DNA of 21,485 nt from a virus, in IMG/VR virus record IMGVR_UViG_3300025072_000063, positions 1-21,485 of that record; one strand, given 5' to 3'. Below, in pieces: positions 1 to 19,501 of this stretch. The position numbers and the translations under genes were made by a program. The stretch's first letter is position 1. The number at the start of each line of letters is the position of its first letter. A model generated the notes under the pieces. That model was not told where the DNA came from and searched no databases. It worked only from the letters and a program-made list of their open reading frames with translations.

Positions 1-909
1 ATCACCGTCAGCTGACGACGCGTCGATGTTTTCGATATTACCCTTATCGTCTATCTTTGCTTTACTAACGCCTTCAGCATCTTGCCATACAGCACCTGCG
101 GGTTTCAAACCACGTTTCTGTAAAGTTTCTCTAGATTGATCTCTACGTTGATCAGTACCACTCTTAGCATCTTTAGGAACAGGTTTATCTTCAGCTTCTC
201 TAATGGTATCCCAAAAAATCTTATTATATTTGTATACAGAGTGTAGAGTCTCTAGTAATTTCTCACCTACCTTTGGATCTATAGTAGATTCACTTATAAA
301 TACACTGAACGATTTATCAAAGTTCTCAAAGTTTCCTTTATGTAGTTCAACAATCTCATCTTCAGAAATATTAGAGAGGATATGATCAGCAATCTCTTCA
401 GCAGTCAAAACTTTCGGGGGGTTAGGTATGTCATCGTCATTAATGACAGATTTATTTTCCTCTTCATTTTCATTTTTTTCTAGGACCGAGTTTAATTCCT
501 CTACAATTTTCCTTATTAACTGCTGTTGTTTAGACTTCTTAAGATAAACATACTGCTTATACTGATCATCATCACCAGTAAACTTAAGGGGCTTGTCTAG
601 ACCTACTAGAATATATAGTGTACCATCACTCTTAGCTCTTATCTTATTGTTTACCCTATCATTCAGTAGATTAAGAGCCTCATAAAACTTCTCATCATCA
701 TGGATAAACTCTCTTCTCAGATCCATCTTAACATTATTGACAACAAACCTATAGATTGCTTTGATTTTATCTAGTACAGTATAGTCATTTCTATATTGTA
801 CTTCCTTACCCTTAGAATTATACGTATCATCAGAGTCGGAATTCTTTTCTACAAAAGCATGAAACTTATCTATCAGTTTGTTTTTATCTATACGATATTC
901 TATATCCAT
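1..909 (-). CDS. Unrecognised phage protein, C-terminus beyond the window
   Basis: This open frame begins at an ATG at 909 and runs 303 codons without a stop to position 1, so the 3' end is missing. It starts 1 nt after the stop of the transglutaminase-like gene (TGA-C-ATG). I do not recognise the family. The visible part has a charged N-terminal half (residues 1-140), an acidic Asn/Glu/Asp-rich linker (about 143-165), a second helical block (about 168-240), and a basic stretch containing GTDQRRDQSRETLQKRG (about 251-267) before an acidic end. No signal peptide or membrane segment is visible. It lacks the Ser/Thr/Gly-rich beta composition of the neighbouring fibre proteins, so a scaffold, chaperone or internal virion protein is as likely as a fibre. 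The ribosome-binding site is weak (GGTGG, about 7 nt upstream). That it is a gene is well supported; its function is not. Confidence 0.85.
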   Translation of the reverse strand, partial: MDIEYRIDKNKLIDKFHAFVEKNSDSDDTYNSKGKEVQYRNDYTVLDKIKAIYRFVVNNVKMDLRREFIHDDEKFYEALNLLNDRVNNKIRAKSDGTLYILVGLDKPLKFTGDDDQYKQYVYLKKSKQQQLIRKIVEELNSVLEKNENEEENKSVINDDDIPNPPKVLTAEEIADHILSNISEDEIVELHKGNFENFDKSFSVFISESTIDPKVGEKLLETLHSVYKYNKIFWDTIREAEDKPVPKDAKSGTDQRRDQSRETLQKRGLKPAGAVWQDAEGVSKAKIDDKGNIENIDASSADGD

Positions 910-910
910 G

Positions 911-1261
911 TCAACCACCCGGCCAGTTCCATCCTATAATGTGTCCAGTTTCTTTTCTGTTTTCTACAGCTTTCTTAGCAGGAAACATTTTCAGTGTTCT
1001 TTTGTTCGGTTTGTAGGCTGCATAAAACTCTTTTATAGGCCAACCTATACTAGCATACTTACTTAACTTTGCTTCCATAGTCTGCCAATCATATACTCGA
1101 CCTTTATACTCAGCCCAAGCGTGATTGTATTTCTTACCATCCCAAGGGTCTTTCACTTCAGCATATACAACACGAGCACCCTTGTCTCTAGTATGAAGCA
1201 TTGCCCATTTCATAGTATAACCTAAGCATTCACCACAAGCAACTGCTTCAGATAATTTCAT
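911..1261 (-). CDS. Small transglutaminase-like Cys-His-Asp protein
   Basis: A 116-residue protein with a compact papain/transglutaminase-type pattern. A candidate nucleophile Cys12 lies in ACGECLGYTMKWA at the start of a helix, His47 in YNHAWAEY and Asp58 in GRVYDWQTM. The order C...H...D and the 'HAW-E--G-VYDW' strand pair are what one sees in transglutaminase-like cysteine enzymes. The protein is about the size of the bare core fold, with no signal peptide or membrane helix. I chose the ATG at 1261 over a longer frame opening with TTG at 1276 because AGGAG lies just upstream and the TTG version overlaps the preceding gene. Activity could be a peptidase, an amidase or cross-linking; the sequence does not decide. 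It lies directly downstream of two LamG fibre genes, which suggests virion or lysis-stage work. Fold assignment is inference; the three residues are seen directly. Confidence 0.72.
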   Translation of the reverse strand: MKLSEAVACGECLGYTMKWAMLHTRDKGARVVYAEVKDPWDGKKYNHAWAEYKGRVYDWQTMEAKLSKYASIGWPIKEFYAAYKPNKRTLKMFPAKKAVENRKETGHIIGWNWPGG

Positions 1262-1265
1262 ACTA

Positions 1266-1270
1266 CTCCT
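1266..1270 (-). promoter_or_regulatory. Ribosome-binding site deciding the start of the transglutaminase-like gene
   Basis: The minus strand reads AGGAG followed by TAGT and then ATG at 1261. The spacing is short (4 nt) but the match to the anti-Shine-Dalgarno sequence is good. The site overlaps the last codons of the upstream LamG gene, whose stop is at 1271-1269, so the two genes are probably translationally coupled. The TTG at 1276 has no comparable site. Confidence 0.6.
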
Positions 1271-2648
1271 AAGCAATATTGATTTCAGAGATAACAGCCT
1301 GAGAAGGAATAGTTGAGATGAAGTTTTGCATTACCTCAGCATCACTCAAAGGTCTGTTAAATACTCTAGTTAGTCCTACAACACCAGTTAGTCCGCTTGT
1401 TGATCTATCCATATTCTTTCCGATGATCATTCTAGCATCACTATTAATTATAGGAAAGTCAATGTTGCCAGATAAACTAGTAGTGCTTCTAGCCAATATT
1501 GTTTTCTCTCCATTAATAAATATAGCGGCACCACTAATAGGGATAGTACGACCGGAAGTTGCTTGAGCACAAACATGTACCCATTGATTCAAGGGCATCT
1601 GTAATGCCCCAGCCTGTGTTCCAGACCCAGCTGTCAATGAACCGGCACTTACTGTTTCTCCATTAACATTCAACTCAACACTACCGTTCTTTACAGACAC
1701 TCCAGCTAACACAGTGCCACAAGCACCTACAGTAAACAAACTTGTACTATCACCTGTACTAAACATTTTAACATAACCCATCACAGCTATGCCCGAAGTA
1801 GATGTGTCTCTGAGTGAAAATGTATTTGATGTTGCTGTTTCAATATATGACGAACCGTCTAATAAGAATCCACCTTCAATGGGTCCGTGGGTCCAACCTG
1901 TAACGGTCGCTGTTACGGCATTATCTGCGTGATACGTAGCCATTCCACCAGCAGCCTTACCATAAATCCCGGCAGTAACTGCATTACCACTCCAATCCAT
2001 TACTCCAGTAAGACCAGAGGTGGTAAACGTTTCTTGTTTTTCCATACGATTATACATATATTGACAAACTAAACTTGATCCTACCCGACCACTGGCACTA
2101 CCTAAAGGATACGAAGTGCTCAACGGTCTAATACCCATACCCATACTAGTTAAGTTATTCAAAGGACTAGCAGCTTTGATTTGAAGATCGCCAGCAAATA
2201 CATTTGTTTCTTTATCTAATATGATAACGTCAACTTGTCTATTACCATCTACGACTGTACAAATACTATATTCTCTTTCTTCAGCACTAGTCGAAAACAA
2301 AGTGTTACCTACAGCACCACCAACCGGTGTTCCCCAATCAGAAGTCAATCCACCCGCGCCAGAAGTCAAACTTCGTGCCCTTATTCTGTGTGTACCCGTA
2401 AGTGACGTTAGACCTACACCATCCCCATAACTTATACCTAATAAACCATCAGCCGCGGTGACTGCCAAGCTAGCACCAGTAATGCTAAAACTTTCATCTC
2501 TAGATTGTCTAATACGATAAACAGATAAAAAGTTACCGCCAGTTAATGCGGATGTTTCATTAAGTGTATAGATAGGTTGTTTATCAAAACTTCCTCGATT
2601 GCTCTTAAATACAATCTTTGATTCTATTGTAAAGTTTTTTGATTCCAT
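1269..2648 (-). CDS. LamG-type (concanavalin-like) tail fibre/appendage protein
   Basis: A 459-residue Ser/Thr/Gly-rich beta protein with no membrane segment. The C-terminal part (about residues 245-450) has the LamG/jellyroll signature: GGFLLDGSSYIE, then a strand with GIAVMGYVKM, then WVHVCAQ, then AAIFINGEK, and finally MIIGKN...GLTRVFNRPLSDAEV, the classic last strand of LamG domains with the 'R-(F/W)-N-R-L-(T/S)-EE' ending. The N-terminal 200 residues look like another beta-rich region, not identified. LamG domains in phage virions usually bind surface glycans, so a role in adsorption is likely. The gene starts at an ATG 1 nt after the previous stop (TAA-T-ATG), with a weak AGG upstream. 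That it is a LamG protein is well supported; its exact position in the tail is not known. Confidence 0.82.
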   Translation of the reverse strand: MESKNFTIESKIVFKSNRGSFDKQPIYTLNETSALTGGNFLSVYRIRQSRDESFSITGASLAVTAADGLLGISYGDGVGLTSLTGTHRIRARSLTSGAGGLTSDWGTPVGGAVGNTLFSTSAEEREYSICTVVDGNRQVDVIILDKETNVFAGDLQIKAASPLNNLTSMGMGIRPLSTSYPLGSASGRVGSSLVCQYMYNRMEKQETFTTSGLTGVMDWSGNAVTAGIYGKAAGGMATYHADNAVTATVTGWTHGPIEGGFLLDGSSYIETATSNTFSLRDTSTSGIAVMGYVKMFSTGDSTSLFTVGACGTVLAGVSVKNGSVELNVNGETVSAGSLTAGSGTQAGALQMPLNQWVHVCAQATSGRTIPISGAAIFINGEKTILARSTTSLSGNIDFPIINSDARMIIGKNMDRSTSGLTGVVGLTRVFNRPLSDAEVMQNFISTIPSQAVISEINIA

Positions 2649-7553: not shown

Positions 7554-7997
7554 TTAGTATAGTTTAACCTCTATAAATTTACACCCTAAACATTCAGTTA
7601 TTTCTTTCTTTCTCATAACATCTCTTTCTTGTTGTTTAGGATTAGAGTGATATTTTTCTAACACTTCTATTACTGTGTTTTTCTTCTTATCATAACCATC
7701 AACAAAATATCCTAATACCTTAAATTCTCCACCATTTTCTGCGTGCTGAAAATTGTAACCATGTTGTAATCCATATTCATCAATAACTTTACATACATAT
7801 GGATTATAGTTTGGTGAATATTTGCCATTCAATTTTTCTATTCTTGATATTAATTTCTCTCTTATAATCTCTTTTGTTTTTGCTGTATGTCTTCTTCGGC
7901 TAGATGATAAATCTATTCTTTTCCTATGTATATATGTGCCATCTTTATATCTTTGTTTCTTTGTAGTAGATATTTTTCTCTTTTGAGTATCGCTCAT
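7554..7997 (-). CDS. Probable free-standing homing endonuclease (PD-(D/E)XK/Vsr-like)
   Basis: A 147-residue, very basic protein. The N-terminus contains SSSRRRHTAKTKEIIREKL (residues 31-49), resembling the NUMOD3-type DNA-binding helix found in phage homing endonucleases. The C-terminal half has VDGYDKKKNTVIEVLEKYH (99-117) followed by a D..RKKEI helix (about 126-133) and LGCKFIEV (137-144). This is the 'xVDGYD..n.hIE.xE..H...D..R...h...LgxxfhxI' layout of nuclease-fold homing enzymes related to Vsr (the EDxHD group). Candidate catalytic residues are D100/D103, E111, E114, H117 and D126. Homologues I remember usually carry Asp where Leu113 sits, so activity is uncertain. It interrupts a run of paralogous virion genes and has lower GC than they do, fitting a mobile gene. 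The start ATG at 7997 has AAGG 4 nt upstream. Confidence 0.75.
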   Translation of the reverse strand: MSDTQKRKISTTKKQRYKDGTYIHRKRIDLSSSRRRHTAKTKEIIREKLISRIEKLNGKYSPNYNPYVCKVIDEYGLQHGYNFQHAENGGEFKVLGYFVDGYDKKKNTVIEVLEKYHSNPKQQERDVMRKKEITECLGCKFIEVKLY

Positions 7998-9607: not shown

Positions 9608-10165
9608 TCATTTTGTTGTGGTTTTACTCTGTTTGGTTGTTCTTTTCTTTGGAGGTGTTGAAGAAACAACTTTTTTATCTTCGGCAGCTGCCTGTTCCGC
9701 GGCAACGGCCGCTTCTGCAACCGCTCTCTTAACTTCTTTACTAACAACAATATTAATAGATTTGATACTATCGGTGGCATGATTATTGTATAAAAACTGA
9801 AATGGTGCGTGTGTGTTTTTCCCTAACCATGTAATCAAACCATCAATACGACCATGACTTTCATCAATATAGATTGCATCGAAATTACTGTAGTTATCTT
9901 TTACATACTGAATAACATCTTCTACTATTTCGTTTCTAATGTTAGAAATATGGTTTAGTTTGATATGGTCAGCTAAGTCTGGACTGAAGAATTTGTTAGG
10001 TAAATCAATACAAACCAAAGTTTCCACAACCTCAGCTAGTCGAACAGAAACCTGTCCAGCATAATAGCCCACCTCCAAAACATTTTTCTTACCTATAAGA
10101 CTATTGACAACTTCGCCCTCTTTATCGGATGACACTTGTCTAAATTGATTAATGTATTCGTTCAT
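9608..10165 (-). CDS. Class I SAM-dependent methyltransferase-like protein with Lys/Ala-rich tail
   Basis: A 185-residue protein. VLEVGYYAGQVSVRLAEV (29-46) has the E-x-G-x-x-x-G pattern of methyltransferase motif I, VCIDLPN (51-57) ends strand 2 with the acidic residue that usually holds the ribose, and FDAIYIDESHGRIDGLITWL (95-114) matches the 'D-xhhIDxxH' strand of the Methyltransf_24-like group. The fold is short, ending near residue 142. The last 43 residues switch to low complexity: Ala/Glu helix (146-162) and then a Lys/Thr/Pro tail, PPKKRTTKQSKTTTK, like histone H1 tails. The substrate is unknown. It sits between the gpI-like tail gene and structural genes, suggesting modification of a virion component or of surface glycan. 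The start ATG at 10165 has AAAGGAAT upstream. Confidence 0.68.
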   Translation of the reverse strand: MNEYINQFRQVSSDKEGEVVNSLIGKKNVLEVGYYAGQVSVRLAEVVETLVCIDLPNKFFSPDLADHIKLNHISNIRNEIVEDVIQYVKDNYSNFDAIYIDESHGRIDGLITWLGKNTHAPFQFLYNNHATDSIKSINIVVSKEVKRAVAEAAVAAEQAAAEDKKVVSSTPPKKRTTKQSKTTTK

Positions 10166-18661: not shown

Positions 18662-18836
18662 TTTTTATCTCTACGCCTCGTTTGATAAGTTCTTTTTCCA
18701 TCTCTACTAAATTTTTCTTTAGTGGTTCAATTTTTTTGAACAACTCTTTAGCAATAGTTAAAAAATCTTCGTATTGAACAAGACTGTCAGTATATTCTGT
18801 AGCTAATTCTTCAATATTTTTATCATCAAAAGTCAT
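18648..18836 (-). CDS. Small helical protein coupled to the sigma and spike genes
   Basis: A 62-residue protein, unrecognised. It is almost entirely helical in appearance, with IEELATEYTDSLVQYEDFL followed by LFKKIEPLKKNLVEMEKEL, whose spacing of hydrophobics suggests a short coiled coil. The ATG at 18836 overlaps the stop of the sigma gene (TAATG), and its own 3' end overlaps the start of the spike gene by 14 nt, so all three are translationally coupled. The upstream GAGG supports the start. Overlap at both ends and codon-consistent reading argue that it is real despite its size. A baseplate assembly chaperone or sigma partner are both possible; there is no sequence proof. Confidence 0.75.
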   Translation of the reverse strand: MTFDDKNIEELATEYTDSLVQYEDFLTIAKELFKKIEPLKKNLVEMEKELIKRGVEIKNVGS

Positions 18837-19501
18837 TAGCCCTCTATAAAATCTAATTTGATATGAGAATACAATCCTCTAATCTTATTCAAAGACTTGG
18901 TAATTTTACGAGATGGCAGATCAGTTGCTTCACGAACATAAACATAAAGCTGTTTCTTATTAGTAATGTTTAATATTTGATATTCTTTCAACATTTCAAT
19001 AACAATACTTAACACTTTGTTATCATCAATAGTCAAAACATTGTTTTCATCTTCAATGATCTCAATTAATTCATTAACAACTCTATCAATTAAATTTTTA
19101 CTTTCGTTATCCACAATTTCAGTATTATAATGAATCATACTTAGATCGTGAACAATACCATCTCTACTATCTCCATCTATAAATACCTGCTTCTTAAAAG
19201 AATTAGATTGTTGGATCAACCAATTTTTTACAATGGTACCGAAATACGAATATGATTTCTTGTTAAGTTTAGGATTATAACGATTTAATTTTTCATAAAG
19301 ATGTGTTATAGCTTCATGTTTAATACTATCGTAATCATATAATGTTTTGTTAAAGTTGTAGGCGTAGTAAATGTTTTCCACAAGGCGTTGAAAGGCTGGT
19401 TCTATGGTATTAACATAGATAACATGCTTTTCTTCTATATCTTCCATTTGATTAAATAGAACGATAGCTGTTTCTTCATCTTCGCCCCAATAGTATTTCA
19501 T
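18836..19501 (-). CDS. gp55: Late-transcription sigma factor, T4 gp55-like
   Basis: A 221-residue protein. It begins YYWGEDEETAIVLFNQMED and IYVNTIEPAFQRLVENIYYA (about 29-48), then has a sigma region 2-like core: DYDSIKHEAITHLYEKLNRY and KSYSYFGTIVKNWLIQQSN (82-100), which is the 'K-x-(F/Y)-S-Y-F-x-x-h-x-K-N-x-h-I' motif of T4 gp55-type factors. The C-terminus ends IKLDFIEG, a hydrophobic-acidic tail like the one by which T4 gp55 binds the sliding clamp. gp55 directs host RNA polymerase to late promoters; by family it would control the very operon in which it lies. The ATG at 19501 has AGGAG 6 nt upstream, the best site in the region. T4 gp55 is 185 residues, so this form is somewhat longer. 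Confidence 0.85.
   Translation of the reverse strand: MKYYWGEDEETAIVLFNQMEDIEEKHVIYVNTIEPAFQRLVENIYYAYNFNKTLYDYDSIKHEAITHLYEKLNRYNPKLNKKSYSYFGTIVKNWLIQQSNSFKKQVFIDGDSRDGIVHDLSMIHYNTEIVDNESKNLIDRVVNELIEIIEDENNVLTIDDNKVLSIVIEMLKEYQILNITNKKQLYVYVREATDLPSRKITKSLNKIRGLYSHIKLDFIEG

What the first reader, a model, noticed from the sequence alone, without database searches (positions are those of the whole stretch)
911..1261. Minimal transglutaminase-like protein next to tail fibre genes
A 116-residue protein has a clean C12/H47/D58 pattern of a papain-like/transglutaminase fold. An enzyme of this type among adsorption genes could process or cross-link virion proteins or act on a host surface polymer, and I know of no described function for it.
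Basis: partly seen in the sequence, partly recalled or inferred. Interest (0 to 1): 0.6.

Follow-up and report, generated by a model that had tools for sequence, protein, structure and literature searches.

The report
Phage deamidase-like enzyme, likely capsid cargo
A small marine-phage protein really is a minimal cysteine enzyme of the transglutaminase/papain kind, but it looks like an accessory enzyme that such phages pack into the virion to act inside the host cell, rather than a tool for attachment, and its family has no entry in the libraries searched.

Summary
The ORF is real (minus strand, ATG 1261, stop 911-913, 116 aa, good ribosome site) and C12/H47/D58 is right. Pattern and profile scans found more than 20 homologous loci, all in uncultured virus contigs. 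Across 20 aligned sequences G10, C12, V36, H47, W49, D58, W59 and Q60 are invariant; C9 is not. The AlphaFold model (pLDDT 87) has Cys at a helix start and His and Asp on consecutive strands. Its solved-structure neighbours are nearly all papain/transglutaminase-like (LapG, protein-glutaminase, SseI, vasohibin). A homologue's model is closest to human N-terminal glutamine amidohydrolase (Z 8.8). So fold and catalytic site are supported; a tail or adsorption role is not. The gene is an accessory insertion, absent from the same site in seven sister contigs. Homologues sit among dozens of unrelated small genes (Nudix, kinases) that share a 10-residue leader MIKLKDLLxE with the layout of the T4 capsid-targeting sequence, or are fused to Nudix, ART-like and MuF-like proteins. 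I infer a virion-packaged, host-acting amidase or deamidase. The window's own leader is shortened (MKLSE|A), so packaging of this copy is plausible, not shown. New variant of a known kind.

The parts
911..1261 (-). 116-aa minimal transglutaminase-like protein (P0001); invariant G10, C12, V36, H47, W49, D58, W59, Q60
1226..1228 (-). codon of C12, predicted nucleophile at the start of helix 11-22
1121..1123 (-). codon of H47, in strand 44-52
1088..1090 (-). codon of D58, just after strand 55-57
1247..1261 (-). short leader MKLSE|A: keeps the L-x-E|A cleavage-like motif; homologues have the 10-residue MIKLKDLLxE leader here
   Evidence: L/I-X-E motif from PMC9026906
1266..1270 (-). AGGAG ribosome-binding site
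1269..2648 (-). upstream neighbour: structural protein with a concanavalin-like (Laminin_G_3) domain
1..909 (-). downstream neighbour P0002 (cut by the window end); directly follows the LamG gene in sister contigs that lack P0001

Best explanation
P0001 is a stand-alone, minimal cysteine enzyme of the transglutaminase-like/papain-like superfamily with a C12-H47-D58 triad. Its structural neighbourhood is N-terminal glutamine amidohydrolase (NTAQ1), protein-glutaminase, SseI and LapG, so the likeliest reaction is a Cys-thioester attack on an amide, most probably deamidation of glutamine in, or at the N-terminus of, a host protein. It is an accessory gene in the late operon of a T4-related marine phage, one of a set of small effectors that this kind of phage packs in the head and ejects with its DNA. 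Shown: ORF, conservation, predicted fold, accessory insertion, shared T4-like leader on homologues and their neighbours. Inferred: packaging, cleavage of the leader, reaction and target. Weakest step: the window copy has only a shortened leader.
For: C12, H47, D58 invariant in 20 sequences. P0001 model pLDDT 86.8; VIA neighbours nearly all papain/TGase-like, led by LapG Z 5.7 and protein-glutaminase Z 5.0. Reading the start of each match without gaps, C12 falls on SseI C178 and VASH1 C169, and H47 on VASH1 H204 (numbers from PMC4214742, PMC4866520). L043 homologue model: NTAQ1 Z 8.8, rmsd 2.9, 99 residues; its C18 falls on C28, the residue mutated in the listed C28S entries. NTAQ1's own published structural neighbours are the same set: protein-glutaminase, SseI, LapG (PMC4214742). 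Accessory: absent from the site in seven sister contigs. Cargo: in 18 homologue contigs 46 distinct ORFs start MI[KR]L, with E at position 10 in 40 and hydrophobics at 4, 7 and 8, on 23 unrelated bodies, against 1 of 1605 ATG frames in the window's clade. T4 ipII and ipIII start MKTYQEFIAE|A, the same frame. Tagged proteins are basic, median pI 9.7 against 7.6, as T4 internal proteins are (PMC9026906). The 511-kb contig of L043 has a gp21-type protease, E 1.4e-25. Fusions with Nudix and a weak ART-PolyVal match.
Against: P0001's own leader is MKLSE|A and fails the 10-residue pattern; 0 of 17 window genes match it. No match in any curated family over its cut-off. NTAQ1 was not among the rows for P0001's own model, PF09764 finds nothing, and Z values for P0001 are modest. 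No prohead protease could be sought in the window's fragment. Atomic distances of the triad could not be measured. Deamidation against proteolysis cannot be decided from fold.
Confidence: 0.5

Rival explanations
1. Same packaged cargo enzyme, but a peptidase (LapG/BTLCP-like or lasso-B2-like) that cleaves a host or phage protein rather than a deamidase.
For: LapG is the top neighbour of P0001's own model (Z 5.7) and second family for the homologue (Z 7.0). One homologue gives a weak Transglut_core3 match (E 0.097).
Against: NTAQ1 stands above LapG for the homologue (Z 8.8 against 7.0), and other nearest families include protein-glutaminase, a deamidase; the very small domain leaves little room for an extended peptide cleft (inference).
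Confidence: 0.25
2. A cytosolic accessory enzyme made late in infection and not packaged; the leader on homologues is a general tag of another kind (for example membrane, assembly or regulatory), and P0001 has lost it.
For: P0001's leader is shortened, and the window's clade mostly lacks tagged genes.
Against: Leader length, E10 and hydrophobic positions match the T4 CTS, whose residues 4, 7, 8 and 10 matter by experiment (PMC9026906); the tagged bodies are unrelated and basic.
Confidence: 0.25
3. A tail- or adsorption-associated enzyme that crosslinks virion proteins or acts on a host surface polymer.
For: It sits directly after LamG-containing structural genes and is co-oriented with the baseplate operon.
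Against: Absent in sister phages with the same tail operon; homologues are mostly away from tail genes or fused to Nudix and ART-like cytoplasmic-type domains; no tail-binding domain seen.
Confidence: 0.08
4. A peptidoglycan-type endopeptidase (NlpC/P60 or PeiW-like).
For: PeiW and PeiP, pseudomurein endoisopeptidases, are structural neighbours (Z 4.9 and 4.7).
Against: NlpC/P60 uses C-H-H (PMC10318531), here the third residue is invariant Asp; no wall-binding repeats; cytoplasm-type partners.
Confidence: 0.07

Closest known systems
NTAQ1, protein N-terminal glutamine amidohydrolase (PF09764)
   Same: Fold and C-H-D order; best structural match of a homologue's model (Z 8.8; its C18 falls on C28)
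   Different: About 7% identity; no PF09764 match in the searched contigs; about half the size; NTAQ1 not listed for P0001's own model
Protein-glutaminase and SseI structural group
   Same: Fold neighbours of both models; catalytic Cys in register or within one residue
   Different: No sequence similarity; larger, secreted proteins
LapG / BTLCP cysteine proteases
   Same: C-H-D, transglutaminase-like; top neighbour of P0001's own model
   Different: Periplasmic calcium-dependent protease; no profile match
T4 internal proteins with a capsid-targeting sequence (IPII, IPIII, Alt)
   Same: Homologues and their neighbours share a 10-residue leader ending in E10 with hydrophobics at 4, 7, 8; basic; unrelated bodies
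   Different: Leader letters differ; P0001 itself has only MKLSE|A; packaging untested
Polyvalent proteins of phages and conjugative elements (PMC5512222)
   Same: The same domain is fused in large phage proteins with Nudix, ART-like and MuF-like parts
   Different: P0001 is a single domain; that paper's main text contains neither 'transglutaminase' nor 'papain'

Membership tests
Transglutaminase-like/papain-like superfamily (Pfam clan CL0125) | Catalytic C-H-D in this order, Cys at helix N-terminus, His and Asp on following strands | tested here: met
   Invariant in 20 sequences; secondary structure of two models
Transglutaminase-like/papain-like superfamily (Pfam clan CL0125) | Fold similarity to solved members | tested here: met
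   Neighbours nearly all of this superfamily, Z up to 5.7 (P0001) and 8.8 (homologue); P0001's Z alone is modest
Transglut_core (PF01841) | Profile score over curated cut-off | tested here: not met
   14.5 bits against 23, E 0.045
NlpC/P60 (PF00877) | C-H-H triad | tested here: not met
   Third residue is invariant Asp; C-H-H per PMC10318531
NTAQ1 (PF09764) | Sequence profile match | tested here: not met
   No match at E<=10 in seven records including the window
NTAQ1 (PF09764) | Structural match of P0001 itself | tested here: inconclusive
   Listed for the homologue's model only
NTAQ1 (PF09764) | N-terminal Gln amidohydrolase activity | not testable with these tools
   Needs biochemistry
T4-type CTS-bearing internal protein | 10-residue N-terminal leader, hydrophobic 4/7/8, E10 | tested here: not met
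   P0001 has MKLSE|A; met by close homologues L036, L039, L097, L100, L102, L106, L107
T4-type CTS-bearing internal protein | gp21-type prohead protease in the same genome | tested here: inconclusive
   Present in the 511-kb contig of L043 (E 1.4e-25); others are fragments; the window holds no head genes
T4-type CTS-bearing internal protein | Present inside the virion and ejected | not testable with these tools
   Needs proteomics
Polyvalent protein | Several disparate domains in one polypeptide | tested here: not met
   P0001 is single-domain; met by L032 (1617 aa) and L040 (607 aa)

The most novel reading that the evidence does not exclude
Uncultured marine T4-related phages use a modular 10-residue leader (MIKLKDLLxE) to load twenty or more unrelated effector families into the head, one of them a new minimal NTAQ1/protein-glutaminase-like deamidase of which the window gene is a member. 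This would be a phage enzyme that rewrites host protein amides on entry.
Probability: 0.4. Interest if true: 0.75.

Novelty: new variant of a known kind. Interest (0 to 1): 0.52.

Why it matters
The enzyme family has no entry in Pfam (over cut-off), PHROGs or NCBIfam and no tblastn match in 50,697 phage records. If it is packaged, it adds amide chemistry to the short list of known virion-delivered host-modifying activities, such as T4 Alt. The shared leader gives a sequence handle for listing likely ejected effectors in uncultured phages, which a T4 packaging experiment could test directly.

Tried and rejected
Direct relatives: no match in phages by tblastn, PHROGs, NCBIfam or PDB sequence search, nor with 8-residue patterns in viral or bacterial contigs. 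One pattern scan was wasted by a frame slip. The bacterial/archaeal genome scan with the profile confirmed none, so a host origin could not be shown. Foldseek against PDB gave no E<=1e-3; in the VIA look NTAQ1 is absent from P0001's rows, which excludes nothing. Ten window-clade records searched with the profile: none. An upstream start giving a full leader was checked: the in-frame upstream residues are CKTSSQLFLLRLLSLKSILLRSS, no leader. A strict leader test on my own gene calls undercounts, because start choice was imperfect. NlpC/P60 rejected on the triad. Literature searches for a phage deamidase or a shared packaging leader of this kind found no description; the library holds only open-licence papers.

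Full report
WHAT IS THERE. The ORF lies on the minus strand, 1261 to 911, 116 aa, with AGGAG before the ATG and the stop one base before the next start. It follows a structural gene with a concanavalin-like domain (Laminin_G_3, E 1.2e-9) in a co-oriented late operon that contains a gp6-like baseplate wedge (phrog_219, E 3.9e-33). The record is a 21,485-base virus contig. The nearest isolates, at 30-33% identity of the wedge, are Microcystis phage Mel-JY01, Flavobacterium phages immuto and an uncultured phage.

HOMOLOGUES. Ordinary searches found nothing. A DNA pattern for H-A-W-x-E-x2-G-x2-Y-D-W gave four relatives, and profile scans raised this to more than 20 loci, all from uncultured viruses. 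In 20 aligned sequences G10, C12, V36, H47, W49, D58, W59 and Q60 are invariant, and Y45, F79, P85 and W111 nearly so. C9 is not conserved. dN/dS between pairs is 0.13-0.29. The C-H-D site is therefore under selection and is not a chance pattern.

FOLD. The AlphaFold model of P0001 (13 sequences) has pLDDT 86.8 and pTM 0.81, with C12 at the start of helix 11-22, H47 in strand 44-52 and D58 after strand 55-57. Aligned to solved structures, its neighbours are nearly all papain/transglutaminase-like: LapG Z 5.7, protein-glutaminase 5.0, PeiW 4.9, SpvD, SseI, arylamine N-acetyltransferases, vasohibins, cathepsin B. These Z values alone would be unconvincing; the agreement on one superfamily, and the register of the catalytic residue, is the argument. 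Reading matches from their first residue without gaps (an inference, since the tool gives only ranges), C12 falls on SseI C178 (4g29) and on VASH1 C169, and H47 on VASH1 H204 (numbers from PMC4214742 and PMC4866520). The model of homologue L043 (pLDDT 83.4) matches human NTAQ1 at Z 8.8, rmsd 2.9 over 99 residues, above LapG (7.0) and protein-glutaminase (6.1); C18 falls on C28. NTAQ1's published nearest structures are the same three: protein-glutaminase, SseI and LapG (PMC4214742). This favours amide hydrolysis of glutamine, but PF09764 does not match by sequence and a peptidase is not excluded.

CONTEXT. In sister contigs L048, L052, L061, L062, L063, L064 and L065 the LamG gene is followed directly by the P0002-like gene with no P0001, and G011/G014 carry a different 474-aa gene there. 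P0001 is thus an accessory insertion. Its close homologues lie in clusters where many small genes begin MIKLKDLLxE. In 18 such contigs 46 distinct ORFs start MI[KR]L; L4 in 46, L/I7 in 44, L/I8 in 42, E10 in 40; with the leader removed they fall into 23 clusters without detectable similarity. In the window's clade the same start occurs once in 1605 ATG frames. Tagged proteins are more basic than untagged ones of similar size (median pI 9.7 against 7.6; sequences are not all independent). P0001 has pI 9.6.

LEADER. T4 ipII and ipIII begin MKTYQEFIAE|A. The first ten residues suffice for packaging; residues 4 and 7 matter for targeting and 8 and 10 for cleavage, after L/I-X-E (PMC9026906). MIKLKDLLxE fits this frame exactly. 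The 511-kb contig of L043 has a gp21-type protease and its own variant of the leader, 12 matches against 3.5 expected in the 240 kb read. The same enzyme domain is also fused to a Nudix domain (L040) and lies in a 1617-aa protein with a weak ART-PolyVal match (L032).

LIMIT. P0001 itself has MKLSE|AVACGEC where homologues have MIKLKDLLNE|ATIACGEC: the L-x-E|A remains, five residues are missing. In the sister contig G011 small genes start MKLKEA, MKLREA, MKLRNVLSEA, MKLRETLTES, so short forms recur nearby, but a functional leader in the window copy is not shown. The shortest T4 propeptide named in PMC9026906 is 7 residues (Alt).

VERDICT. Fold and active site: about 0.93. Family used as packaged cargo in relatives: about 0.7. 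Window copy packaged: about 0.5. Deamidation as the reaction: about 0.5.

Noticed in passing
window 7554-7997 (-): A basic 147-aa ORF (pI 9.7) with a sub-threshold match to REase_MTES_1575 (E 0.072), not seen between the neighbouring structural genes in the sister contigs listed; perhaps a homing-type endonuclease insertion.
   Followed up: partly
window 18836-19501 (-): 221-aa protein with a weak match to the late sigma factor family (phrog_234, E 2e-4), possibly a gp55-like late sigma factor placed next to baseplate genes.
   Followed up: no
window 9608-10165 (-): Methyltransferase-like protein (Methyltransf_24, E 0.039, below cut-off) within the baseplate operon, with a counterpart at the same position in sister contigs.
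   Followed up: no
L047 (122-kb contig), e.g. 7879, 9499, 9962, 13134: Many unrelated genes start MNWF/MNWY, a second kind of shared N-terminal tag, also carried (as MNWH) by that contig's homologue of P0001.
   Followed up: partly
L055/L056 and L036: Another recurrent start, MK(I/L)(K/T)..(L)K..I(K/R)E, on small genes (e.g. L056 2749, 3051; L036 3574).
   Followed up: no
L034 2647-5538 (+): The homologue sits at the N-terminus of a 964-aa open frame whose later part looks intein-like (CLCLTNC ... VVHNS); no Pfam match at E 0.01, so its MuF-like label rests on my reading only.
   Followed up: no
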